64,000 nt of DNA from a virus. The stretch lies in the IMG/VR virus record IMGVR_UViG_3300020213_000034, positions 1 through 64,000 of that record. The stretch is one strand, 5' to 3'. Below the pieces are notes generated by a model that did not search any database, was not told the DNA's origin, and worked only from the letters and a program-made list of their open reading frames with translations. This document shows positions 10,942 to 52,000 of the stretch, piece by piece; the first letter of the stretch is position 1, and each line of letters starts with the position of its first letter. The translations under genes were made by a program, and so were the position numbers.

Positions 10942-11016
10942 GCCTCAGTGATGTAGAAGTCAACATACGACCTTGCCAAGGTTGATACCAGAGTGCGAAT
11001 CTCTGCTGGGGCACCA
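10942..11016 (+). tRNA. tRNA-Gly(GCC)
   Basis: Acceptor GCCTCAG/CTGGGGC, D-stem ATGT/ACAT, anticodon stem CGACC/GGTTG with loop TTGCCAA, T-arm CAGAG-TGCGAAT-CTCTG, encoded CCA. Confidence 0.9.
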
Positions 11017-11021
11017 ATTTT

Positions 11022-11088
11022 CTGAAGACGACGGACGAGGCTTTGGCCCGGCGAAAATCCGGGATGGGTAGCGAGCGGTCGTTTTCAG
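11022..11088 (+). ncRNA. stem-closed structured RNA element, unassigned
   Basis: An 11-bp stem (CTGAAGACGAC with GTCGTTTTCAG, one G-U) encloses 45 nt containing the hairpin CCCGG-CGAAAAT-CCGGG, which has the size of a T-arm. It has no CCA and no full cloverleaf. It sits between tRNA-Gly and the next tRNA. Could be a degenerate or permuted tRNA or another small RNA. Confidence 0.4.
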
Positions 11089-11149
11089 GTGTCCGATGGT
11101 AGCGCGGGTCACTTGGCTTGCCACTGTGTCAGCGCGAGAGTAGGACCTC

Positions 11150-11238
11150 GGGTCGATTCCGATAGCAGCGAATCGTTTGGCCTTTTAAGCCAACTGGAGA
11201 AATCCACGTCGGGGGTGCAAGTCCCTCTCGGCCCACCA
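11150..11238 (+). tRNA. tRNA-Lys(TTT) with long variable arm
   Basis: Acceptor GGGTCGA/TCGGCCC, D-stem CGAT/ATCG, anticodon stem TTGGC/GCCAA with loop CTTTTAA, variable arm TGGA-GAAA-TCCA, T-arm GGGGG-TGCAAGT-CCCTC, CCA. A class II variable arm on a Lys anticodon is unusual, so identity is less certain than structure. Confidence 0.75.
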
Positions 11239-11244
11239 ATTTAT

Positions 11245-11319
11245 GGCGGTTTAGCCAAGCAGTAAGGCAGTGGCTTGCAAACCCACTATACGTCAGTGCA
11301 ATTCTGACAACCGCCTCCA
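11245..11319 (+). tRNA. tRNA-Cys(GCA)
   Basis: Acceptor GGCGGTT/AACCGCC, anticodon loop TTGCAAA with a C-C mismatch at the loop-closing position, T-arm GTCAG-TGCAATT-CTGAC, CCA. Confidence 0.88.
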
Positions 11320-11323
11320 AACT

Positions 11324-11400
11324 AGGAAGAAATGCCGGCTCGAATCCGGCGCGGTCCTACGGACCGACTCGTCTAAGCGACAAGGCGCTTCCTCTCTTTA
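11324..11400 (+). tRNA. circularly permuted tRNA-Lys(CTT)
   Basis: The 3' half comes first: anticodon stem AGGAA (11324-11328), variable GAAAT, T-arm GCCGG-CTCGAAT-CCGGC (11334-11350), acceptor GCGGTCC (11351-11357). After TAC follows the 5' half: acceptor GGACCGA (11361-11367), CT, D-stem CGTC/GGCG, C, anticodon stem TTCCT (11389-11393) and the full loop CTCTTTA (11394-11400). Every helix and joint has standard tRNA length once the halves are rejoined; the only acceptor mismatch is position 7-66 (A-G). No CCA is encoded. Its last base coincides with the first base of tRNA-Ala. How it would be circularised, cut and ligated is unknown; permuted tRNA genes are known from red and green algae and some archaea. 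Confidence 0.72.
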
Positions 11401-11475
11401 GGCCGAAAGCATTGTTAGTAATGCACCTCCCTTGCACGGAGATTTCTGCGGGTGCAACTCCCGCTCGGTCCACCA
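11400..11475 (+). tRNA. tRNA-Ala(TGC)
   Basis: Acceptor AGGCCGA/TCGGTCC (first pair A-C mismatch, one G-U), D-stem GCAT/ATGC, anticodon loop CTTGCAC, T-arm GCGGG-TGCAACT-CCCGC, CCA. It directly abuts the permuted tRNA half. Confidence 0.85.
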
Positions 11476-11481
11476 ATTTAT

Positions 11482-11539
11482 GTTCCGGCCCACCTGACTT
11501 GTGGGCTTAAATGATGTAGTCGTAAAACTAGGAACTCCA
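11482..11539 (+). other. 58-nt aberrant tRNA-like element ending in CCA
   Basis: GTTCCGG pairs with TAGGAAC (one mismatch) and is followed by T-CCA. An anticodon-arm-like hairpin CCCAC-CTGACTT-GTGGG (it would read GAC, Val) comes directly after the acceptor strand. A D-loop-like GATGTAGTCGT follows, but there is no T-arm. Either a truncated or rearranged tRNA or a processing decoy. Confidence 0.4.
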
Positions 11540-11540
11540 T

Positions 11541-11616
11541 GCATCGGTAATTCAGTGGCCAGAATGTCTGCCTTCCAAGCAGAACGTCGTGGGTTCGACT
11601 CCCACCCGGTGCTCCA
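11541..11616 (+). tRNA. tRNA-Gly(TCC)
   Basis: Acceptor GCATCGG/CCGGTGC, D-stem ATTC/GAAT, anticodon stem TCTGC/GCAGA with loop CTTCCAA, T-arm GTGGG-TTCGACT-CCCAC, CCA. Confidence 0.92.
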
Positions 11617-11622
11617 TTTCAT

Positions 11623-11707
11623 CCAGCAGTGCCAGAGCAGCAATTGGAGGTGGCTGTAAACCATCTGCCTTCGGGCTACGGAGGTGCAAGTCCTTCCTGC
11701 TGGACCA
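11623..11707 (+). tRNA. tRNA-Tyr(GTA)
   Basis: Acceptor CCAGCAG/CTGCTGG, anticodon stem GGTGG/CCATC with loop CTGTAAA, class II variable arm as expected for bacterial Tyr, T-arm GGAGG-TGCAAGT-CCTTC, CCA. Confidence 0.9.
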
Positions 11708-11714
11708 ATTTCAT

Positions 11715-11789
11715 GGGGGATTAGCTTAAATAGTAGAGCGCGTGCCTGATTAGCGCGTGGCGGTGGAGCGTTACCACCATCCCCTACCA
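11715..11789 (+). tRNA. tRNA-Ile(GAT)
   Basis: Acceptor GGGGGAT/ATCCCCT (G-U first pair), anticodon stem CGTGC/GCGCG with loop CTGATTA, T-arm GGTGG-AGCGTTA-CCACC with an atypical T-loop, CCA. Confidence 0.88.
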
Positions 11790-11795
11790 TTTCAT

Positions 11796-11869
11796 AGGGC
11801 CGACAGGTATAGTATCGGCAGGCACTCCAAACGCCTAGCGAGTTGGTGCGATTCCAACCGGCCTTGCCA
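11796..11869 (+). tRNA. tRNA-Trp(CCA)
   Basis: Acceptor AGGGCCG/CGGCCTT, anticodon loop CTCCAAA with an A-C loop-closing mismatch, T-arm GTTGG-TGCGATT-CCAAC, discriminator G, CCA. Confidence 0.87.
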
Positions 11870-11876
11870 TTTCAGT

Positions 11877-11951
11877 ATGATAGCAACGATAGCGACAGCG
11901 TATGTCGCATTGTGGATGATCCTTCTTCCGCAGTGGCGACGTAAGAACTAA
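11877..11951 (+). CDS. putative 24-residue membrane peptide in the tRNA array
   Basis: The ORF reads MIATIATAYVALWMILLP then QWRRKN: one hydrophobic helix with a basic C-terminus. It fills an otherwise empty 120-nt spacer between tRNA-Trp and tRNA-Phe. The stop is TAA. A GC-rich inverted repeat (AGGGC...GCCCT, about 11961-11984) follows. Too short to be sure it is translated. Confidence 0.3.
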   Translation: MIATIATAYVALWMILLPQWRRKN

Positions 11952-11993
11952 GACAACAACAGGGCCGCCGGACGCCGACGCCCTCTAAATTTC

Positions 11994-12069
11994 GGGACGG
12001 TAGCTGATGTAGTCATAGCGGCGGCCTGAAGAGCCGTTGAAGTTGGTGCAATTCCAACCCGTCCCACCA
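11994..12069 (+). tRNA. tRNA-Phe(GAA)
   Basis: Acceptor GGGACGG/CCGTCCC, anticodon stem GCGGC/GCCGT with loop CTGAAGA, T-arm GTTGG-TGCAATT-CCAAC, CCA. Confidence 0.9.
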
Positions 12070-12075
12070 TTTTAT

Positions 12076-12147
12076 TGCCGGGAGATTTGGAATCCTCCAG
12101 CCTCATAAGCTCGGATGAAGTGAGTTCGATTCTCACCCCAGCATCCA
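12076..12147 (+). tRNA. tRNA-Met(CAT), copy 1
   Basis: Acceptor TGCCGGG/CCCAGCA (one mismatch), anticodon loop CTCATAA, T-arm GTGAG-TTCGATT-CTCAC, CCA; 72 nt with a short D-arm. A CAT anticodon could also be initiator or Ile2; sequence alone does not decide. Confidence 0.83.
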
Positions 12148-12153
12148 TTTCAT

Positions 12154-12229
12154 CGGTCCAAAGTGTTACTTGGTCGCACACTCCGTTTGGGGCGGAATAG
12201 TCGGGGTTCAAATCCCCGTGGGCCGACCA
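12154..12229 (+). tRNA. tRNA-Pro(TGG)
   Basis: Acceptor CGGTCCA/TGGGCCG, anticodon loop TTTGGGG on stem CTCCG/CGGAA, T-arm CGGGG-TTCAAAT-CCCCG, CCA. Confidence 0.9.
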
Positions 12230-12252
12230 CCTTCGTCAGCAATATCAACCCA

Positions 12253-12609
12253 ATGCTAGTCATTTTCATTCTCATGAATATCTCCTGCCCCCCGAATTAC
12301 AAGACGTCCGTCTCCGCCAGCCCGCGCAATCAGTTCGGGATGCTTGGCGGATATACGCCTCCGCTTCAGTGGAGCGTTGATCCGACGTTTGGCTCGTTTA
12401 TTGAAGACCCGGAGCATCCCGGCGACACAACCCTCGGCTTCTTCGTTGCGACAACCGATAATGCAAGGTATGGCCAAACGACCAATTATACGGTCACGGC
12501 CCAAACGGTCAACGGGCCAGTCGTGCAAAGTGGAGGCGTGCAGCTAAGTTTTCCGGAGGCCCCGGCTGACCATATTACGGTGACCGTGGGTCTACCAGTC
12601 CCTGCCTAA
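12253..12609 (+). CDS. Ig-like/beta-sandwich protein inside the tRNA array
   Basis: 118 residues (or 111 from the second ATG at 12274, MNISCPPNYKTSVSASP). The body alternates short beta-strands (LQWSVDPTFGSF, TNYTVTAQTV, GVQLSFPEAPADHITVTVG), as in bacterial Ig-like or cadherin-like domains found on phage structural proteins. It is the only substantial protein gene within the RNA array, between tRNA-Pro(TGG) and tRNA-Pro(CGG). A virion decoration role is possible; not proven. Confidence 0.7.
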   Translation: MLVIFILMNISCPPNYKTSVSASPRNQFGMLGGYTPPLQWSVDPTFGSFIEDPEHPGDTTLGFFVATTDNARYGQTTNYTVTAQTVNGPVVQSGGVQLSFPEAPADHITVTVGLPVPA

Positions 12610-12619
12610 TGGCAGTTTT

Positions 12620-12695
12620 CCAGATGTGGTGCCAAAGGCTGGCGACTCCGCTCGGAACGGAGATTATGCAGGTTCGAGTCCTGTCATCTGGACCA
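12620..12695 (+). tRNA. tRNA-Pro(CGG)
   Basis: Acceptor CCAGATG/CATCTGG, anticodon stem CTCCG/CGGAG with loop CTCGGAA, T-arm GCAGG-TTCGAGT-CCTGT, CCA. Confidence 0.9.
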
Positions 12696-12699
12696 TTTC

Positions 12700-12777
12700 A
12701 AATCAGCGGTGAGCCGGCGCGAATCCGGCCTGCACCTCGGCCAAGGTTTTTCGCGGGCTCCGCGAATCCGCTGATTT
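12700..12777 (+). ncRNA. stem-closed tRNA-like element, possible degenerate permuted tRNA
   Basis: AAATCAGCGG (12700-12709) pairs with CCGCTGATTT (12768-12777). Inside are a perfect T-arm-like hairpin GCCGG-CGCGAAT-CCGGC (12713-12729) and a hairpin TTCGCGG-GCT-CCGCGAA. The order outer stem, 4-nt joint, T-arm is that of a permuted tRNA starting at the anticodon stem. Only about 4 bp of acceptor can form, so it may be decayed. Confidence 0.4.
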
Positions 12778-12787
12778 TCACTTTCAC

Positions 12788-12861
12788 GGGTTATTGTTGA
12801 ATGAGTATCTTGTCCCTCTGTCTAAGGGACGTAGCGAGTGCGAGTCTCGCATAGCCCGCCA
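12788..12861 (+). tRNA. tRNA-Asp(GTC)
   Basis: Acceptor GGGTTAT/ATAGCCC, anticodon stem TCCCT/AGGGA with loop CTGTCTA, T-arm GCGAG-TGCGAGT-CTCGC, discriminator G, CCA. The D-arm is weak. Confidence 0.85.
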
Positions 12862-12865
12862 TTTC

Positions 12866-12941
12866 CCACGATTAGTTCAACGGCTAGAACGGCAGTCCTA
12901 CACACTGCGCGCAGAGGGTTCGACTCCTTCATCGTGGACCA
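12866..12941 (+). tRNA. tRNA-Val(TAC)
   Basis: Acceptor CCACGAT/ATCGTGG, D-stem GTTC/GAAC, anticodon stem GCAGT/ACTGC with loop CCTACAC, T-arm GAGGG-TTCGACT-CCTTC, CCA. Confidence 0.92.
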
Positions 12942-12946
12942 TTTAT

Positions 12947-13025
12947 TGCAAGGAAGGCAAATCGGTGAACGCCGGCAGTCTGTTAAACTGTGTCGTAGAT
13001 GGTTCGACCCCATCCCTTGCAGCCA
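12947..13025 (+). tRNA. tRNA-Asn(GTT), copy 1
   Basis: Acceptor TGCAAGG/CCTTGCA, D-stem GGC/GCC, anticodon stem GCAGT/ACTGT with loop CTGTTAA, T-arm GATGG-TTCGACC-CCATC, discriminator G, CCA. Confidence 0.88.
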
Positions 13026-13029
13026 TTTC

Positions 13030-13105
13030 GGGAGTGTAGCTCAGCAGTCAGAGCATTCGGTTGTTAACCGACAGCGCGCAGGTGCGAATCCTGCCACTCC
13101 CTCCA
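13030..13105 (+). tRNA. tRNA-Asn(GTT), copy 2
   Basis: Acceptor GGGAGTG/CACTCCC, D-stem GCTC/GAGC, anticodon loop TTGTTAA, T-arm GCAGG-TGCGAAT-CCTGC, discriminator T, CCA. Confidence 0.88.
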
Positions 13106-13106
13106 T

Positions 13107-13182
13107 TCTCGCGTAGCTCAGTAGTTAGAGCGCCTCCTTGACATGGAGTAGGTCGCTGGTGCGATTCCAGCTGCGAGAACCA
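13107..13182 (+). tRNA. tRNA-Val(GAC)
   Basis: Acceptor TCTCGCG/TGCGAGA, D-stem GCTC/GAGC, anticodon loop TTGACAT, T-arm GCTGG-TGCGATT-CCAGC, CCA; only 1 nt after the previous tRNA. Confidence 0.88.
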
Positions 13183-13192
13183 TTTGAGCCCT

Positions 13193-13245
13193 TGGACAAT
13201 ACCGTGTGCCGCATCCCGGCAGCTGTGCGACCCAGCAATCCAACG
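13193..13245 (+). other. intercalated element, unassigned
   Basis: Between tRNA-Val and tRNA-Gln lie about 70 nt without a cloverleaf. TTGGA and TCCAA can close a loop containing the hairpin TGCCG-CATCC-CGGCA. No CCA. Boundaries are approximate. Confidence 0.25.
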
Positions 13246-13253
13246 GCGGTTAC

Positions 13254-13328
13254 GGGCCTATAGTGTAACAGTCAGCACACGGAGCTTTGACCTCTTGAGA
13301 CTAGGTGCAAATCCTAGTGGGCCTGCCA
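13254..13328 (+). tRNA. tRNA-Gln(TTG)
   Basis: Acceptor GGGCCTA/TGGGCCT (G-U pairs), D-stem GTG/CAC, anticodon loop CTTTGAC, T-arm CTAGG-TGCAAAT-CCTAG, discriminator G, CCA. Confidence 0.83.
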
Positions 13329-13335
13329 ATTTCAT

Positions 13336-13410
13336 GCCTCGTTCGTATATCGGCAATTACGCCGCTCTCTGAAAGCGGACAGGGTGGTTCGATTCCATCA
13401 CGGGGCGCCA
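13336..13410 (+). tRNA. tRNA-Gln(CTG)
   Basis: Acceptor GCCTCGT/ACGGGGC, anticodon stem CCGCT/AGCGG with loop CTCTGAA, T-arm GGTGG-TTCGATT-CCATC, discriminator G, CCA. Confidence 0.9.
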
Positions 13411-13413
13411 TTT

Positions 13414-13629
13414 CAATCGCGGGCATTCGCTGTCTTGTCTATCTGGCGGGATAGAGGAAGTTCGCGTCTGCACAACACGTCGAGGCAGGCTCACGCCGTT
13501 ACGACCTCACGACCGCAGCAAGCCAAACAGAACGAGGGGTGAGTGTTGCTCCTATGACTTCGGGTTGGCGCTCAGACAAATGAATGCCTCCTGCTTCGGC
13601 AGAAGACAGAAACGCGGCTACAGCGATTG
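13414..13629 (+). ncRNA. rnpB: RNase P RNA, compact bacterial type
   Basis: The 216-nt RNA has P1 CAATCGC/GCGATTG joining its ends and P2 GGGCAT (13421-13426) with ATGCCT. P3 is the hairpin CTATC...GATAG. The GAGGAAG element leads into P4: AG-(bulged U)-TCGCGT pairs with ACGCGG-CT, preserving the universally bulged U. The 3' core AGACAAATGAATGCC ... GACAGAAACGCGGCTACAG matches the bacterial consensus (E. coli AGATGAATGACTGTC ... GACAGAACCCGGCTTATCGG region). It is much shorter than the usual 350-400 nt. It lies in the array between tRNA-Gln and tRNA-Lys with the same TTT spacer after CCA. It would supply the catalytic RNA for tRNA 5' maturation; whether it uses host RnpA protein is unknown. 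Confidence 0.88.
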
Positions 13630-13639
13630 AAAACTTTAC

Positions 13640-13714
13640 GGACCACAAGCATTAACAGTGATGCACTAGGCTCTTACCCTTGGGAACACGGCGCAATACC
13701 GTGGCGGTCCACCA
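13640..13714 (+). tRNA. tRNA-Lys(CTT)
   Basis: Acceptor GGACCAC/GCGGTCC (one A-C mismatch), D-stem GCAT/ATGC, anticodon stem CTAGG/CCTTG (one T-T mismatch) with loop CTCTTAC, T-arm CACGG-CGCAATA-CCGTG, CCA. The anticodon equals that of the permuted gene at 11324. Confidence 0.82.
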
Positions 13715-13718
13715 ATTT

Positions 13719-13768
13719 CTGCCAGTTGCCGGATACCCAACGCGGTTCCCGGAACCTTCTTCTGGCAG
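13719..13768 (+). other. 50-nt stem-closed element, unassigned
   Basis: CTGCCAG and CTGGCAG form a perfect 7-bp acceptor-like stem enclosing 36 nt with the hairpin GGTTC-CCG-GAACC. There is no anticodon or T-arm and no CCA. It sits between two tRNAs at normal tRNA spacing. Confidence 0.35.
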
Positions 13769-13774
13769 GATCAT

Positions 13775-13846
13775 GGCCGGCGATTCAGCAATCCACAGAC
13801 TCTCATAAGGTCAGTGAATCCGGGGCAGCACCGGAGCCAGCTTCCA
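13775..13846 (+). tRNA. tRNA with CAT anticodon, copy 2 (Met, fMet or Ile2)
   Basis: Acceptor GGCCGGC/GCCAGCT (one mismatch), compact D-arm around TTCAGCAAT, anticodon loop CTCATAA, T-arm TCCGG-GGCAGCA-CCGGA, CCA. It belongs to the group with the unusual T-loop GGCAGCA. Confidence 0.78.
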
Positions 13847-13851
13847 ATTTC

Positions 13852-13929
13852 GGTCTAAATGCGGAGATAGTCACCGCGCATCATTGGTAATGATGAATAG
13901 GCTGGGTGCGAATCCCAGTTAGACCTCCA
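13852..13929 (+). tRNA. tRNA-Thr(GGT)
   Basis: Acceptor GGTCTAA/TTAGACC, D-stem GCGG/CCGC, anticodon stem CATCA/TGATG with loop TTGGTAA, T-arm CTGGG-TGCGAAT-CCCAG, CCA. Confidence 0.92.
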
Positions 13930-13935
13930 GTTTAC

Positions 13936-14019
13936 GGGGATATGGTGGAACGGCAGACACAGTTGCCTTAGAAGCATCCGACGAAAGTCATGGGGGTTCA
14001 AATCCCTCTATCCCTACCA
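13936..14019 (+). tRNA. tRNA-Leu(TAG)
   Basis: Acceptor GGGGATA/TATCCCT, D-stem GTG/CAC, anticodon loop CTTAGAA, variable arm GAC-GAAA-GTC, T-arm GGGGG-TTCAAAT-CCCTC, CCA. Confidence 0.92.
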
Positions 14020-14025
14020 ATTTAT

Positions 14026-14100
14026 GGCCGATTCGACAACCAGCTAAGTCCTCGCCCTTTCAAGGCGAAGTAGTGGGGGCAGCACCCACATCGGCTACCA
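14026..14100 (+). tRNA. tRNA-Glu(TTC)
   Basis: Acceptor GGCCGAT/ATCGGCT, D-stem GAC/GTC, anticodon stem TCGCC/GGCGA with loop CTTTCAA, T-arm GTGGG-GGCAGCA-CCCAC, CCA. Confidence 0.9.
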
Positions 14101-14105
14101 TTTAT

Positions 14106-14180
14106 GGCCTGTTCGTCTATAAGTCAGGACGGTTGCTTCTCAAGCATCAAAGGCGGGAGCGTTACCCGCACAGGCTACCA
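14106..14180 (+). tRNA. tRNA-Glu(CTC)
   Basis: Acceptor GGCCTGT/ACAGGCT, D-stem GTCT/GGAC, anticodon loop TTCTCAA, T-arm GCGGG-AGCGTTA-CCCGC (atypical T-loop), CCA. Confidence 0.88.
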
Positions 14181-14418
14181 TTTGATTGGAACTACCCAGA
14201 TGCGCTGGGACGTGGCAGCAGGAAGCTGAAGGGGATGCGCAAGCGAGTCGGGTCATGGCTGACAAGGGCGAAACTCCGTTACACTAAGGCACTCCCAGAG
14301 ATCGTAAGCTCTGGCTCCGCGCTGCAGGGAAGCATTTTCAAATGAGCGGTCAACCGAATGCCATCCCTCCGCTACACGGGCCTCTCGGCGGGATGCAAAA
14401 CCCGCTTTCAATCAATCT
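14181..14418 (+). other. 238-nt structured gap in the array, unassigned
   Basis: No tRNA, RNase P or tmRNA core could be folded and no convincing ORF is present. Visible hairpins: CCCAG-ATGCG-CTGGG, CAGC-AGGAA-GCTG, CCAGAG-ATCGTAAG-CTCTGG, and GCGGG-ATGCAAAA-CCCGC near 14390-14405. The conserved leader TTTCAAATnAGCGG at about 14337 also opens the element at 12697. Possibly one or two further ncRNAs. Confidence 0.35.
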
Positions 14419-14502
14419 CGGCTTGTGGTGGAACAGCAGACACAGGGCGCTCAAAACGCCCCGCCTAACCGCGTGAGGGTGCGATTCCCTCCTTGCCGAC
14501 CA
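14419..14502 (+). tRNA. tRNA-Leu(CAA)
   Basis: Acceptor CGGCTTG/CTTGCCG (two T-T mismatches), Leu-type D-arm GTGG-AACAGCAGA-CAC, anticodon stem GGGCG/CGCCC with loop CTCAAAA, long variable arm, T-arm GAGGG-TGCGATT-CCCTC, CCA. Confidence 0.85.
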
Positions 14503-14509
14503 ATTTCAT

Positions 14510-14600
14510 AGTCTCGTGTCCCAGCGGACCCGGAGGATTTATACCCCTCAGTGCGCCAGATTAGCGCCGTGACTGGGGGCAGCACCCAGCGGGACTACCA
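14510..14600 (+). tRNA. class II tRNA, anticodon TAT (Ile) most likely
   Basis: Acceptor AGTCTCG/CGGGACT. The anticodon stem GAGGA/CCCTC has a loop-closing mismatch and loop TTTATAC, giving TAT; a register one base earlier would give TTA with poorer pairing. Variable arm GCGC...GCGC, T-arm CTGGG-GGCAGCA-CCCAG, CCA. A long variable arm on an Ile tRNA is unusual, so identity is uncertain. Confidence 0.7.
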
Positions 14601-14604
14601 TTTC

Positions 14605-14676
14605 GCAGATGCCTTCAGCAAGGCAGCGGCTTTCGTAAAGCTGATGAAGTCGGGGCAGCACCGACCTTCTGCTCCA
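14605..14676 (+). tRNA. tRNA-Thr(CGT)
   Basis: Acceptor GCAGATG/CTTCTGC (one mismatch), compact D-arm CCTT-CAGC-AAGG, anticodon stem CGGCT/AGCTG with loop TTCGTAA, T-arm GTCGG-GGCAGCA-CCGAC, CCA. Confidence 0.86.
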
Positions 14677-14682
14677 TTTCAT

Positions 14683-14756
14683 GTTGGCTTGTATTCAGCA
14701 ATCCTACCGCCCTTGTAGCGCGGAAGAAGCCGGGGCAGCACCGGCAGCCAACTCCA
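14683..14756 (+). tRNA. tRNA-Thr(TGT)
   Basis: Acceptor GTTGGCT/AGCCAAC, compact D-arm around TTCAGCAAT, anticodon loop CTTGTAG with a C-C loop-closing mismatch, T-arm GCCGG-GGCAGCA-CCGGC, CCA. Confidence 0.87.
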
Positions 14757-14762
14757 TTTCAT

Positions 14763-14841
14763 CAGGGGAAGTAGTGTAACGCAGCAAACACTGGAGATTG
14801 TGAACCTCCGATTGTGGGTGCAAATCCCGCCCCCCTGACCA
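14763..14841 (+). tRNA. tRNA-His(GTG)
   Basis: Acceptor CAGGGGA/CCCCCTG (one mismatch), D-stem GTGT/ACAC, anticodon loop TTGTGAA with an A-C loop-closing mismatch, T-arm GTGGG-TGCAAAT-CCCGC, CCA. The base before the acceptor is T, not the G-1 usual for tRNA-His. Confidence 0.83.
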
Positions 14842-14845
14842 TTTC

Positions 14846-14920
14846 CCCGTCATAGCTCAAGAGACAGAGCAAGCCCCTGCGAAGGGCGAGATTGCAGTGC
14901 GAGTCTGCATGATGGGACCA
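14846..14920 (+). tRNA. tRNA-Arg(GCG)
   Basis: Acceptor CCCGTCA/TGATGGG, D-stem GCTC/GAGC, anticodon stem GCCC/GGGC with loop CTGCGAA, T-arm TGCAG-TGCGAGT-CTGCA, CCA. Anticodon GCG is atypical for bacteria, which normally use ACG. Confidence 0.87.
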
Positions 14921-14924
14921 TTTC

Positions 14925-15001
14925 GTCTCGTTACATCAATCATATAGACCCGGGCCTTCTAAGCCTTGTGGATGCTGGTGAGAGCCCAGCACGAGACACC
15001 A
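14925..15001 (+). tRNA. tRNA-Arg(TCT)
   Basis: Acceptor GTCTCGT/ACGAGAC, anticodon loop CTTCTAA, T-arm GCTGG-TGAGAGC-CCAGC with an atypical T-loop, CCA. Confidence 0.85.
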
Positions 15002-15005
15002 ATTT

Positions 15006-15073
15006 GCGGATACTTATTGGGGTAGTGCCCAAGCCCAAAGGACGGCACCAAGTCCGAGTAAGGTAATATCCGT
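15006..15073 (+). other. 68-nt stem-closed tRNA-sized element, unassigned
   Basis: GCGGATA and TATCCGT form a 7-bp acceptor-like stem at the position and spacing of a tRNA gene. Inside, GGAC-GGCACCAA-GTCC resembles a small arm, but no anticodon arm can be placed and no CCA follows. Possibly a degenerate tRNA. Confidence 0.35.
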
Positions 15074-15084
15074 GATATATTTTT

Positions 15085-15159
15085 GCTCCATTCGTCCAAT
15101 GTACAGGGCCTGCGTCTTCGGAACGCATGATGAGGGTTAGATTCCTTCATGGAGCGCCA
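15085..15159 (+). tRNA. tRNA-Arg(TCG)
   Basis: Acceptor GCTCCAT/ATGGAGC, D-stem GTCC/GGGC, anticodon stem TGCGT/ACGCA with loop CTTCGGA, T-arm GAGGG-TTAGATT-CCTTC, discriminator G, CCA. Confidence 0.9.
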
Positions 15160-15177
15160 CTTTATAAAAACCATCAC

Positions 15178-15252
15178 TCTCTTGTAGCACAAAGGACAGT
15201 GCGGCGGTTTCCTAAACCGTTGATGCGGGTTCAAGTCCCGCCGAGAGAACCA
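15178..15252 (+). tRNA. tRNA-Arg(CCT)
   Basis: Acceptor TCTCTTG/CGAGAGA, D-stem GCAC/GTGC, anticodon stem GCGGT/ACCGT with loop TTCCTAA, T-arm GCGGG-TTCAAGT-CCCGC, CCA. Confidence 0.91.
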
Positions 15253-15630: not shown

Positions 15631-16248
15631 ATGAACATCAAGAACGTGCTCGGGCTACCCGTGCTTTCGCTCAACAAGAATTGGCAGGCTTACGACGACA
15701 GGAAGAACGTCAGAAGGGCATTCGAGGACATGACGTCCGGCATCGACCTACCAGCATTCTACGGGATGGACATCGAGCTTCACCCTGACGGCACGCTGAT
15801 CTACGCCAATCCGTGCGACATGGATGATTGGGAGCAGCTGGCCGTGCGTCCCGGGGACGACTTCATCTTCACTGGCCGCAGGAACATCCGCGCACCCCGG
15901 GTCATCATCAGCCGCAACTACGACAAGACCTCGGTCAAGCCAATCAAGCTTACCTACTCGGCCATCAAGAAGAGGGACAAGCAGCAGTGCCAATACTGCC
16001 GCCAGTTCTTTCCGCTCGAGGAGCTGAATGTTGACCACGTAACCCCCCGTCACCACGGCGGCGTGGACTCGTGGGATAACCTTGTATGCTCGTGCATCCC
16101 GTGCAACAGCAAGAAGGGGCACAAGCTGAACGAGGAAATCGGCTACGTTCCGCTGAATTCGCCCAAGCAGCCGTTGCCGCTTCCGGAAACATTCATTTCG
16201 AACGCCAAGCACCCCAGCTGGATTCCGTTCATGGTGGCCGCGAAATAG
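15631..16248 (+). CDS. HNH endonuclease
   Basis: 205 residues. The C-terminal HNH/beta-beta-alpha-metal domain has CQYCRQFF (zinc pair), LNVDHVTPRHHGG (metal/catalytic His) and NLVCSCIPCNSKKG (second Cys pair and final motif). The N-terminal 130 residues are unassigned. The position directly after the tRNA array fits a packaging-associated or homing-type HNH nuclease. Ends in TAG. The start follows 13 nt after the last CCA. Confidence 0.85.
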   Translation: MNIKNVLGLPVLSLNKNWQAYDDRKNVRRAFEDMTSGIDLPAFYGMDIELHPDGTLIYANPCDMDDWEQLAVRPGDDFIFTGRRNIRAPRVIISRNYDKTSVKPIKLTYSAIKKRDKQQCQYCRQFFPLEELNVDHVTPRHHGGVDSWDNLVCSCIPCNSKKGHKLNEEIGYVPLNSPKQPLPLPETFISNAKHPSWIPFMVAAK

Positions 16249-16251
16249 GTC

Positions 16252-16257
16252 TTGACC
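16252..16257 (+). promoter_or_regulatory. TTGACC promoter-like element
   Basis: TTGACC 30 nt before the ATG at 16287, in a 38-nt gap. It matches the recurring element but no good -10 is seen. Confidence 0.3.
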
Positions 16258-16286
16258 ATTCCTGTTCCCGCGGTCACCACTGGTGT

Positions 16287-16670
16287 ATGAAAACCTCAGA
16301 ACACCCGGGAAAGATCGCAATGGACAAGGTGCTGTTCGACGCAGCCACTGGCAATGCTACGGACCTAACCGCCTACTCGGCTATAGTCTACCTGCACCAG
16401 CGCTTGGAGGAAGTCGAAAGCAGGCTGGCAGATCGCAATCGAGCATTCAAGCCGCCGGCCCCAGAGGAGGTCGCGGCCTATGCCGCCACCATCACCTTCT
16501 CCCTAGATGGCGCCACGTTCTGCGATTACTACGCAACCCGAAACTGGTGTGTCGGGAAAATAAAAATGAAGGACTGGAAAGCGTGCGTGCGGACATGGAA
16601 ATCGCGCCGCGCCCAAGACGTCCCGAAACGCGGCAACGCTGCCCAGAGTCAATTTGGAGACAAGTTTTAA
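16287..16670 (+). CDS. replication-associated protein (helicase-loader partner)
   Basis: 127 residues. N-terminal helix with LHQRLEEVESRLADRN; C-terminal FCDYYATRNWCVGKIKMKDW then ACVRTWKSRR, the W-x-G-x(n)-MKDWKA-x-RTW signature common at the end of phage replication-initiation/primosomal proteins. Immediately followed (1-nt TAATG overlap) by a DnaC-like loader, supporting a role in helicase recruitment. Confidence 0.65.
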   Translation: MKTSEHPGKIAMDKVLFDAATGNATDLTAYSAIVYLHQRLEEVESRLADRNRAFKPPAPEEVAAYAATITFSLDGATFCDYYATRNWCVGKIKMKDWKACVRTWKSRRAQDVPKRGNAAQSQFGDKF

Positions 16671-17389
16671 TGAAGCTCGAAGAGGTTGAAGTTCGAGACA
16701 CCGCCAAGCCGCTAGACGTCGTCGTCCCCGGCTATATTCCTCCCGCCGTTCCGCCAACCCCCGAGCAGCGGGCCTCAGAGCTTGAGCGCCTTGCCCGTGA
16801 CTACATCGCCCGCGCTCGCAAGCAGGACGCAATCGCACGCTACGAGGCCTACTGCCCACCGGAATACAAGAGCTATGATCGCAATCACCCGGTGGCTGCG
16901 GCGAACATGGAGAACATCAATCGTATCTTGTCGTGGAAATACGGAAAGAGGGGCCTGCTTGTGACGGGACCGACCGGTGTCAACAAGACGCGCTCGCTCT
17001 GGGGGCTGACGCGCCGGCTGGCCCATGATGACGGTGTGGATTTCCGCTACTACAACGCATCAGACTGGCTCTCTGGCCTTCACGAGTGCGTGAAGTATGG
17101 GCGCGATGAGGCAAAGGGGTGGGTGGACAAGCTCGGCTGGTGCCCGCTGGTCATCATCGATGACTGGGGGCAGGAGGCTACGCTGAAGTCCCGGGAGGAT
17201 TGGGCGCAGGCGTGGTTCTTCCGCTTCCTTGACTTGCGCATCGAGCGCGGCCTTCCTGTCGTCATGACCACCAACCTCAAGGCCCGCGACATCGCTGAGC
17301 GTTCGGACGCCATCCGCGGCGACCCCCTTATCCGTCGCATGCTCGAGATCATGGATGTCGTCAACTTCTGGCCTCAGGACAGAAAATGA
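16670..17389 (+). CDS. DnaC-like AAA+ helicase loader
   Basis: 239 residues. Walker A GPTGVNKTRS near residue 103, Walker B VIIDDWG near residue 163, sensor-like VVMTTNL near residue 201, and an arginine-containing segment IRGDPLIRRM near the C-terminus. Length and order fit DnaC/DnaI-type loaders that place the host or phage replicative helicase. ATGA overlap with the next gene. Confidence 0.85.
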   Translation: MKLEEVEVRDTAKPLDVVVPGYIPPAVPPTPEQRASELERLARDYIARARKQDAIARYEAYCPPEYKSYDRNHPVAAANMENINRILSWKYGKRGLLVTGPTGVNKTRSLWGLTRRLAHDDGVDFRYYNASDWLSGLHECVKYGRDEAKGWVDKLGWCPLVIIDDWGQEATLKSREDWAQAWFFRFLDLRIERGLPVVMTTNLKARDIAERSDAIRGDPLIRRMLEIMDVVNFWPQDRK

Positions 17390-17952
17390 GACTGCGCATC
17401 AATCGCAAGCACATGAGTCAACCGCATGGCGGTTGGGGCTACCCGGTTCCCGATGGCCCCGTGCTGAACGCGGACACGGTTGATGCGCTGGTCGAGAAGC
17501 TCTCCGACTACCGCGAGGCGAATGGGCAGCCTGTTGGCGAACCCGAGCATGACATCGCCAAGCATCACGCGGCGAAGTGGCCTTGGCTGATTGAGGAGAT
17601 CGAGGACGCGGACGTCGAGCTTAACGAGGCTGAGGCTTGGATTCACCGCGTCTGGCGATCCCCGCCGCTGCGTCAGGCGGAGACACGCGCCAGAGAGGAG
17701 CGATTTTCTCAATGCCTCAAGTGCGTCCATTTCGAGCCGCTCGACACCGAATCGCTGACGAATGAGGCGGCGCGCCGACTCCTCTGCCTGAATCCGGCCA
17801 AGCACAGGCCGGAGCACGGCTGGTGCTTGCTTCGCGGGTGGATTCCTTCTGTTGCGGTCCAGATACAGGACCCATGGGAATTTGCCGATTGGACCGGCAA
17901 GGACAAGGCATGCTGGCTTGACAAGGAAACAAAAACTGACATCACCAAATAA
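17386..17952 (+). CDS. Cys-containing hypothetical protein
   Basis: 188 residues with an acidic helical middle (WLIEEIEDADVELNEAEAWI) and a C-terminal Cys cluster (CLKCVHFEPL, RRLLCLNPAKH, GWCLLRGW), likely one zinc site. It is in the helicase-loader operon, so a replication accessory role is plausible. No family recognised. Confidence 0.7.
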   Translation: MRLRINRKHMSQPHGGWGYPVPDGPVLNADTVDALVEKLSDYREANGQPVGEPEHDIAKHHAAKWPWLIEEIEDADVELNEAEAWIHRVWRSPPLRQAETRAREERFSQCLKCVHFEPLDTESLTNEAARRLLCLNPAKHRPEHGWCLLRGWIPSVAVQIQDPWEFADWTGKDKACWLDKETKTDITK

Positions 17953-51174: not shown

Positions 51175-51539
51175 TGCCAAGGTATACCGAGTTCAAATCG
51201 TGCTGTGCCCTCATGGAGTGGTGGTCCTTCTACGCACGGATCAACAAGTTCTACGAGGGCCTGCTGTTTCACTGCCCCAACCAGTCGGCGGGAGGCGTCA
51301 AGAATGGGCGCAATCTGCAGCGCATGGGTGTGCGCAAGGGCCAGCCCGACTACATGCTGGCGATTCCGCGTGGCGTATATCATGGGATGTTCATCGAGAT
51401 GAAGTCAGCTGATGGCAGGCTTTCTCCGGAGCAAAAGGTTGCCCTTGATAAGCTTGCCCAGCAAGGCTACTGCATCGCAGCTTTCTACTCGACAGATGAA
51501 GCTCGCAACGGCATTGAGGCCTATCTGAAACAGCCATGA
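51174..51539 (+). CDS. VRR-NUC nuclease
   Basis: 121 residues. NQSAGGVKNGRNLQRMGVRK then GQPDYMLAI and HGMFIEMKSADGRLSPEQK form the VRR-NUC core (P-D...E-x-K catalytic residues) of PD-(D/E)XK nucleases. Size matches stand-alone phage members. Likely a structure-specific nuclease. ATGA overlap with the next gene. Confidence 0.87.
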   Translation: MPRYTEFKSCCALMEWWSFYARINKFYEGLLFHCPNQSAGGVKNGRNLQRMGVRKGQPDYMLAIPRGVYHGMFIEMKSADGRLSPEQKVALDKLAQQGYCIAAFYSTDEARNGIEAYLKQP

Positions 51540-52000
51540 CACCGACTTACATATTCGACCTAGACGGAACGCTCGCGCTCTGTCATCACCGTCAGCATAT
51601 TCTAGACAATCGGGCGAACCCGCATCGCTGGCGCGACTTCTTCAAGGCCTGCGTGGATGACGAGCCTAATCGCTCCGTGATCCACACCTTCCATGCCTTG
51701 CTTCGCTCCGAGGGGGCTGTTGCGATCTGGTCCGGCCGCAGCGACGAGGTTCGTGAAGAGACGGAGCAGTGGCTCGAGTCGCGCCTTCACGTCAGCCGTC
51801 AGTGGCTGCGCGAGAACCTGCGCATGCGCCCGGCCGGAGACAGCCAGCCCGATGATACACTGAAGGGCGGATGGATGGACTCAATTATCACCCATGAATA
51901 CGCCGGCCCGGTCGCTATCTTTGACGACCGACAAAAGGTTGTTGATATGTGGCGTTCCCGCGGTCTTACCTGCTATCAGGTTCAGCCCAGCTTCGATTAA
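51536..52000 (+). CDS. Pnkp-like 3'-phosphatase (HAD family)
   Basis: 154 residues. YIFDLDGTLALCHHR is the DxDGT HAD nucleophile motif; AVAIWSGRSDEVREETEQWL, LRMRPAGDSQPDDTLKGGWM and IFDDRQKVVDMWRSRGLTCY follow the C-terminal phosphatase domain of T4 polynucleotide kinase. No kinase domain is present. It could remove 3' or 2',3'-cyclic phosphates from nicked DNA or RNA. Interesting beside the permuted tRNA-Lys. Confidence 0.83.
   Translation: MTPTYIFDLDGTLALCHHRQHILDNRANPHRWRDFFKACVDDEPNRSVIHTFHALLRSEGAVAIWSGRSDEVREETEQWLESRLHVSRQWLRENLRMRPAGDSQPDDTLKGGWMDSIITHEYAGPVAIFDDRQKVVDMWRSRGLTCYQVQPSFD

What the first reader, a model, noticed from the sequence alone, without database searches (positions are those of the whole stretch)
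11324..11400. Circularly permuted tRNA-Lys(CTT) gene
Seen: a complete tRNA with the 3' half encoded before the 5' half. After rejoining, every stem, joint and loop has standard length (7-2-4/10/4-1-5/7/5-5-5/7/5-7), with perfect anticodon and T stems and only one acceptor mismatch. The acceptor strands are separated by just TAC. Established: permuted tRNAs occur in red/green algae and some archaea, where splicing machinery joins them. In a phage, another route (RNase P cuts plus end repair and ligation) would be needed.
Basis: partly seen in the sequence, partly recalled or inferred. Interest (0 to 1): 0.92.

Follow-up and report, generated by a model that had tools for sequence, protein, structure and literature searches.

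The report
Permuted tRNA-like RNA in phage
Inside a virus's cluster of about 25 transfer-RNA genes sits a tRNA-sized element whose pieces are in swapped order. It is real and kept in a related virus, but it looks at least as much like an unjoined tRNA mimic (as in known bacterial Y RNAs) as like a working tRNA that must be cut and rejoined.

Summary
At 11324-11399 a tRNA 3' half, the triloop TAC and the matching 5' half lie in permuted order between tRNA-Cys and tRNA-Ala, and ARAGORN calls the rejoined sequence tRNA-Lys(CTT). About 0.006 such elements are expected per shuffled array. At the same syntenic place a related phage (terminase ~75% identical) has a second one, with acceptor and anticodon stems paired 13/13 although four acceptor pairs changed on both sides. 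It is therefore not an assembly artefact and probably not a relic.

The same strand order (T arm, closed acceptor hairpin, D arm, ends pairing) is known from YrlA, the tRNA-mimic Y RNA. I found YrlA in several unrelated phages, often beside Ro-like protein genes, and in a more distant phage that shares the exonuclease gene. YrlA is never ligated. Here, both elements close the acceptor with a three-base loop, encode no CCA although the other tRNAs of the array do, show no BHB motif, and no RNA ligase was found. But Rfam YrlA does not match, no Ro gene was found, and the window leaves no room for a Ro-binding stem. I favour a non-decoding, unligated tRNA mimic (0.45) over a permuted decoding tRNA (0.3).

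The parts
11324..11329 (+). AGGAAG: 3' strand of the anticodon/closing stem, which begins the element
   Evidence: pairs 6/6 with 11388-11393; GGGGAG/CUCCCU in the relative
11330..11333 (+). AAAT: variable region
   Evidence: sequence; model alignment
11334..11350 (+). T arm GCCGG-CTCGAAT-CCGGC
   Evidence: 5/5 pairs; 15 of 17 bases the same in relative L026:2527-2543
11351..11357 (+). GCGGTCC: 3' strand of the acceptor stem
   Evidence: 6/7 pairs with 11361-11367
11358..11360 (+). TAC: triloop closing the acceptor hairpin; no CCA encoded
   Evidence: sequence; fold
11361..11367 (+). GGACCGA: 5' strand of the acceptor stem
11368..11387 (+). D-arm region CTCGTCTAAGCGACAAGGCG (5-bp stem, loop AAGCGACA)
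   Evidence: fold; the loop resembles other D loops of this array (e.g. AAGAGACA in tRNA-Arg(gcg))
11388..11393 (+). CTTCCT: 5' strand of the anticodon/closing stem
11394..11399 (+). CTCTTT: would supply anticodon-loop bases 32-37 (CUU anticodon) if the ends were joined
   Evidence: ARAGORN on the rejoined sequence; base 38 would be A11400
11245..11319 (+). upstream neighbour tRNA-Cys(gca), ends in TCCA 4 nt before the element
   Evidence: ARAGORN, Rfam RF00005
11400..11475 (+). downstream neighbour tRNA-Ala(tgc), starts directly after the element
   Evidence: ARAGORN, Rfam RF00005

Best explanation
The element is a conserved, tRNA-sized, circularly permuted tRNA-like RNA that most likely works as an unligated tRNA mimic. 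Transcribed with the tRNA array and freed by processing of tRNA-Cys and tRNA-Ala on either side (inferred), it folds into T arm, acceptor stem closed by a triloop, D arm and a six-pair closing stem formed by its own ends. It would show tRNA-recognising enzymes a tRNA upper half but no CCA end and no anticodon loop. [quoted passage not shown] Shown: sequence, order, pairing, conservation in a second phage, absence of CCA. Inferred: transcription, no ligation, mimic function.
For: Same strand order and closed acceptor hairpin as YrlA, found here in unrelated phages (L160, L117, L124, Mycobacterium phage Snenia, Microbacterium phages Magritte, FuzzBuster, SM23, Zooman, Arthrobacter phage Atuin, Klebsiella phage KP13-26), several within tRNA arrays and several beside genes annotated 'Ro-like RNA binding protein'. 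Y RNA 6CU1 is a circularly permuted match to tRNA (PMC11472068) and YrlA has D, T and acceptor arms (PMC8394870); its tRNA-like domain has been suggested as a competitor of an anticodon nuclease (PMC7790460). Both elements end the acceptor in a three-base loop (window TAC; L026 AAA inside an 8-bp hairpin), a poor place for RNase P and CCA addition (inference). Relative at the syntenic place: 21.1 bits permuted against only a T-arm match canonically, pairing kept through double changes. No BHB; no RNA ligase family.
Against: RF02553 (YrlA) does not match either element at E<=10. My phage YrlA model gives only 16.0 and 14.7 bits, against 27.6 and 21.1 for the rotated-tRNA model and 37-93 for clear YrlAs. 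No TROVE/Ro gene found in the window phage or G004 (not decisive, since the same search also missed the annotated RNA-binding protein of Snenia). The window leaves 4 nt and 0 nt beside the element, so no Ro-binding stem. A 7-nt loop with C32-U33 can be drawn in both (Lys CUU; Trp CCA), as for a decoding tRNA.
Confidence: 0.45

Rival explanations
1. A true circularly permuted tRNA gene: the ends meet in the anticodon loop, are ligated to a circle, RNase P and 3' trimming open the acceptor loop, CCA is added, and a decoding tRNA-Lys(CUU) results.
For: ARAGORN accepts the rejoined sequence as tRNA-Lys(ctt). Processing of the flanking tRNA-Cys and tRNA-Ala would free an RNA with both ends in the loop. 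AAG is heavily used (266 AAG against 41 AAA in nine genes). In algae, permuted tRNAs joined at 37/38 mature through a circle, without encoded CCA in C. merolae (PMC3978253); T. pendens has a 1-nt spacer. The rotated-tRNA model fits better than the YrlA model.
Against: No BHB; no ligase family found; triloop acceptor; no CCA in an array whose other genes encode it; discriminator U instead of the A usual for Lys; U37; base 38 shared with tRNA-Ala; anticodon not conserved in the relative.
Confidence: 0.3
2. A decaying leftover of a tandem tRNA duplication that lost its outer halves, without function.
For: A 3' half followed by a 5' half is what the junction of any two tandem tRNA genes looks like; the array holds other odd tRNA-like stretches (11482-11539) and its composition differs between relatives.
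Against: Two phages with ~70-76% identical structural proteins keep the pairing of both cross-half stems (window 12/13, L026 13/13), five pairs changed on both sides; a relic would not.
Confidence: 0.17
3. A Y RNA of the YrlA family proper, bound by a Ro60/Rsr protein of the phage or host.
For: Same tRNA-like order; phage G005, which shares the exonuclease gene and a similar tRNA array, encodes a TROVE protein and a YrlA about 1 kb downstream of it (L173:14925-15039).
Against: No RF02553 match, no TROVE gene found, no room for the Ro-binding stem in the window.
Confidence: 0.08

Closest known systems
YrlA (Y RNA-like A; Rfam RF02553; structure 6CU1)
   Same: Order T arm, closed acceptor hairpin, D arm, with the ends pairing where the anticodon arm would be; found in phages and within tRNA arrays
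   Different: YrlA carries a long Ro-binding stem beyond the tRNA-like module and usually lies near a Ro gene; neither was found here; T and D loops differ; no RF02553 match
Circularly permuted tRNA genes, type II (junction 37/38) of red and green algae, and type IV of Thermofilum pendens
   Same: 3' half before 5' half, short spacer between acceptor strands, one transcript; CCA not encoded (as in C. merolae)
   Different: Those have a BHB motif at the junction and a splicing endonuclease and ligase in the cell; here no BHB and probably a bacterial host; triloop spacer
Permuted (two-piece) tmRNA
   Same: Circular permutation of a tRNA-like RNA in bacteria, explained by tandem duplication and loss of outer parts (PMC3978253)
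   Different: tmRNA stays in two pieces with a mature acceptor end and a coding part; here no CCA and no reading frame

Membership tests
Circularly permuted tRNA gene | 3' half precedes 5' half, acceptor strands complementary across a short spacer | tested here: met
[quoted passage not shown]
   strict form tested on both sides in window and L026: at most 1 of 4 central pairs
Circularly permuted tRNA gene | ligating machinery available | tested here: inconclusive
   no RNA ligase or RtcB family in scanned phage proteins; host unknown; a PNKP-phosphatase-like domain (PF25109) is present
Circularly permuted tRNA gene | circular intermediate and mature, charged tRNA | not testable with these tools
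   no RNA data
YrlA / bacterial Y RNA | tRNA-like module: T arm, closed acceptor hairpin, D arm in this order | tested here: met
YrlA / bacterial Y RNA | match to RF02553 or to a phage YrlA model | tested here: not met
   no RF02553 match at E<=10; own model 16.0 and 14.7 bits, in the range of ordinary tRNA junctions
YrlA / bacterial Y RNA | long Ro-binding stem formed by 5' and 3' ends | tested here: not met
   window: only 4 nt and 0 nt to the neighbouring tRNAs; L026: a 7-bp helix 17-18 nt out is possible but weak
YrlA / bacterial Y RNA | Ro60/Rsr (TROVE) gene in the genome | tested here: inconclusive
   none in G000 or G004, but the search also missed the annotated RNA-binding protein of Snenia
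Ordinary tRNA gene (possibly intron-split) | 5' half before 3' half with complementary acceptor strands | tested here: not met
   no canonical model match at window 11324-11399 or for the L026 element

The most novel reading that the evidence does not exclude
The first circularly permuted tRNA genes in bacterial viruses: a decoding tRNA matured by punctuation cuts at flanking tRNAs, ligation inside the anticodon loop without a BHB, and opening of a triloop acceptor.
Probability: 0.3. Interest if true: 0.9.

Novelty: new variant of a known kind. Interest (0 to 1): 0.55.

Why it matters
If joined, it would extend permuted tRNA genes, described so far (in the papers I could search) only from algae and one archaeon, to phages, and would require a new ligation route. 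If a mimic, it is a minimal YrlA-like module without the Ro-binding stem in a phage tRNA array, which suggests tRNA mimicry in phages is wider than Ro-bound Y RNAs. Either way, a 'permuted tRNA' in a phage must first be tested against YrlA, which standard annotation often leaves unlabelled.

Tried and rejected
Chance and misassembly: rejected by shuffles and by the second phage. Model R1 as sole proof: rejected, it also matches tRNA-tRNA junctions and YrlA. Strict BHB: absent. Canonical tRNA interrupted by a neighbour gene: no partner halves found. MAFFT alignment of the two elements for pair counting: misaligned the acceptor, replaced by an explicit pair table. More relatives: terminase, portal, capsid and exonuclease scans gave only G004 as a close relative; G005 shares the exonuclease (71%) and an HNH gene, not the structural genes, and has no such element between tRNA-Cys and tRNA-Ala. 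Phage protein searches with terminase, portal and capsid: no match.

Full report
WHAT IS THERE. The window is part of a 64.6-kb virus record with a dense tRNA array at 10.9-15.3 kb: 21 genes by ARAGORN, and Rfam adds 13254-13325, 11715-11786 and 14765-14836. Between tRNA-Cys (ends 11319) and tRNA-Ala (starts 11400) lies an 80-nt interval. It holds AACT, then a tRNA 3' half (11324-11357), TAC, and a tRNA 5' half (11361-11399). Rejoined at the anticodon loop it is read by ARAGORN as tRNA-Lys(ctt). Acceptor 6/7, anticodon stem 6/6, T stem 5/5.

IS IT MORE THAN CHANCE. A 3' half followed by a 5' half is what every junction of two tandem tRNA genes looks like, and rotated ARAGORN scans and the rotated covariance model R1 fire at such junctions. 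The distinguishing features are acceptor pairing across the junction, anticodon-stem pairing from the outer ends, and no canonical tRNA covering either half. A descriptor demanding these finds only 11334 in the window, with 11 hits in 2000 array shuffles. In 1.63 Mb of other fetched sequence it gave 18 hits on both strands, including the syntenic relative, YrlA-like units and chance hits.

THE RELATIVE. IMGVR_UViG_3300037310_000131 (G004; terminase 76/71% in two segments around an intein-like insertion, capsid 86%, portal 69%) has the same array order Gly(gcc), Lys(ttt), Cys, X, Ala(tgc), Gly(tcc) (Lys and Cys read by eye; Cys also by model R2). X (L026:2517-2590) is GGGGAG-AGGC-GCAGGCTCGAATCCTGC-ACTGGGG-TAAAA-TCTCAGT-TCGTATAGCGGATAGTATA-CTCCCT. 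R1 gives 21.1 bits; the canonical model R2 finds only its T arm. Acceptor 7/7 and anticodon stem 6/6 pair; four acceptor pairs, one anticodon-stem pair and one T-stem pair changed on both sides while staying paired. The T loop CTCGAAT is the same in both. This argues against misassembly and against a relic.

A KNOWN THING WITH THE SAME ORDER. A T-arm pattern scan led to unrelated viral contigs with the same order. Their best Rfam family is YrlA (RF02553; 31-43 bits, below its gathering score of 69). In annotated phages homologous loci lie near genes annotated 'Ro-like RNA binding protein' or 'RNA-binding protein' (Magritte, FuzzBuster, Zooman, Atuin, SM23, Snenia). Magritte carries three in a row. 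YrlA is a tRNA mimic with D, T and acceptor arms and a basal stem where the anticodon arm would be (PMC8394870), and its structure superposes on tRNA with a circular permutation (PMC11472068). It is not rejoined. From memory (Chen et al. 2014, not held in the library): Y RNAs near Ro60 were reported in more than 250 bacterial and phage species. RF02553 itself also fires on tandem tRNA junctions (L026:4323-4441 spans two tRNA-Asn genes), so weak hits need care. Phage G005 (L043), which shares the exonuclease gene and a similar array, has a TROVE gene and a YrlA about 1 kb downstream of it.

IS THE WINDOW ELEMENT A YrlA. Not by membership. RF02553 gives nothing at E<=10; a model from 12 phage YrlAs gives 16.0 and 14.7 bits, no more than ordinary tRNA junctions, while clear YrlAs, including some not used in training, give 37-93. 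There is no room for a Ro-binding stem, and no TROVE gene was found (limited, since the same search missed the annotated RNA-binding protein of Snenia). [quoted passage not shown]

IS IT A PERMUTED tRNA. The order and size fit. [quoted passage not shown] merolae (PMC3978253). Here the strict BHB fails in both phages, and no RNA ligase family turned up among the scanned proteins, though a PNKP phosphatase-like domain is present. Both elements end the acceptor with a triloop. The other tRNA genes of the array encode CCA and these do not. The base after the acceptor is U in both. The relative's loop fits Trp(CCA) only in a shifted register. Lys(CUU) is not absurd: AAG outnumbers AAA 266 to 41 in nine genes.

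LITERATURE. In the open-access library searched, no report of permuted tRNA genes in phages or bacteria turned up; subscription papers are mostly missing from it, so this is weak evidence of novelty.

VERDICT. Order, pairing and conservation are shown. Whether the ends are ever joined is not. Weighing triloops, missing CCA, missing BHB and the YrlA precedent against the exact tRNA size, the anticodon stem and the better fit to rotated tRNAs, I put the unligated mimic at 0.45, the permuted decoding tRNA at 0.3, a relic at 0.17 and a true YrlA at 0.08.

Noticed in passing
window 10942-15252, L026, L043 arrays: Non-canonical T loops: 16 of 22 tRNAs in alignment A6 have G at position 55 (TGC/CGC/AGC instead of TTC), and many D loops lack G19; an unusual elbow across three phages.
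   Followed up: partly
window 11482-11539: 58-nt array unit ending in CCA with acceptor-like ends GTTCC/GGAAC, a 5-bp/7-nt hairpin CCCAC-CTGACTT-GTGGG and a D-arm-like stretch, but no T arm; it shares AACTAGGAA with 11320.
   Followed up: partly
L165 (Magritte) 3064, 3203, 3351; L167, L168, L170, L172, L169, L160, L117, L124: Phage YrlA-type Y RNAs, several in tandem; no RNA feature is listed over most of these matches in the records seen, one is annotated tRNA-Asn (SM23).
   Followed up: partly
L173:14925-15039 and 16014-17594 (minus strand): Phage G005 carries a Ro60-like (TROVE) gene and a YrlA about 1 kb downstream, near a large tRNA array.
   Followed up: partly
L043:5478-5897: tmRNA match (RF00023, 70.6 bits, above gathering) inside the phage tRNA array.
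   Followed up: no
L026:4839-5054; L043:11993-12194: Weak archaeal RNase P RNA matches (35.1 and 23.9 bits, gathering 84); the L026 region is part of a ~735-nt stretch conserved at 69% in window 13451-14183, where Rfam found no RNase P match.
   Followed up: partly
L043:4280-5060: A tRNA-Cys-like gene seems interrupted by an ORF-bearing insert (homing-endonuclease-like, by eye).
   Followed up: no
L032:6677-9607: The terminase of relative G004 contains an intein-like insertion absent from the window phage.
   Followed up: no
window 51536-52000: PNKP phosphatase-like HAD protein (PF25109; assignment to this ORF from its sequence), a possible RNA end-healing enzyme; no homologue found in G004.
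   Followed up: partly
window 11797-11869: Probable tRNA-Trp(CCA) missed by ARAGORN and Rfam (read by eye).
   Followed up: no
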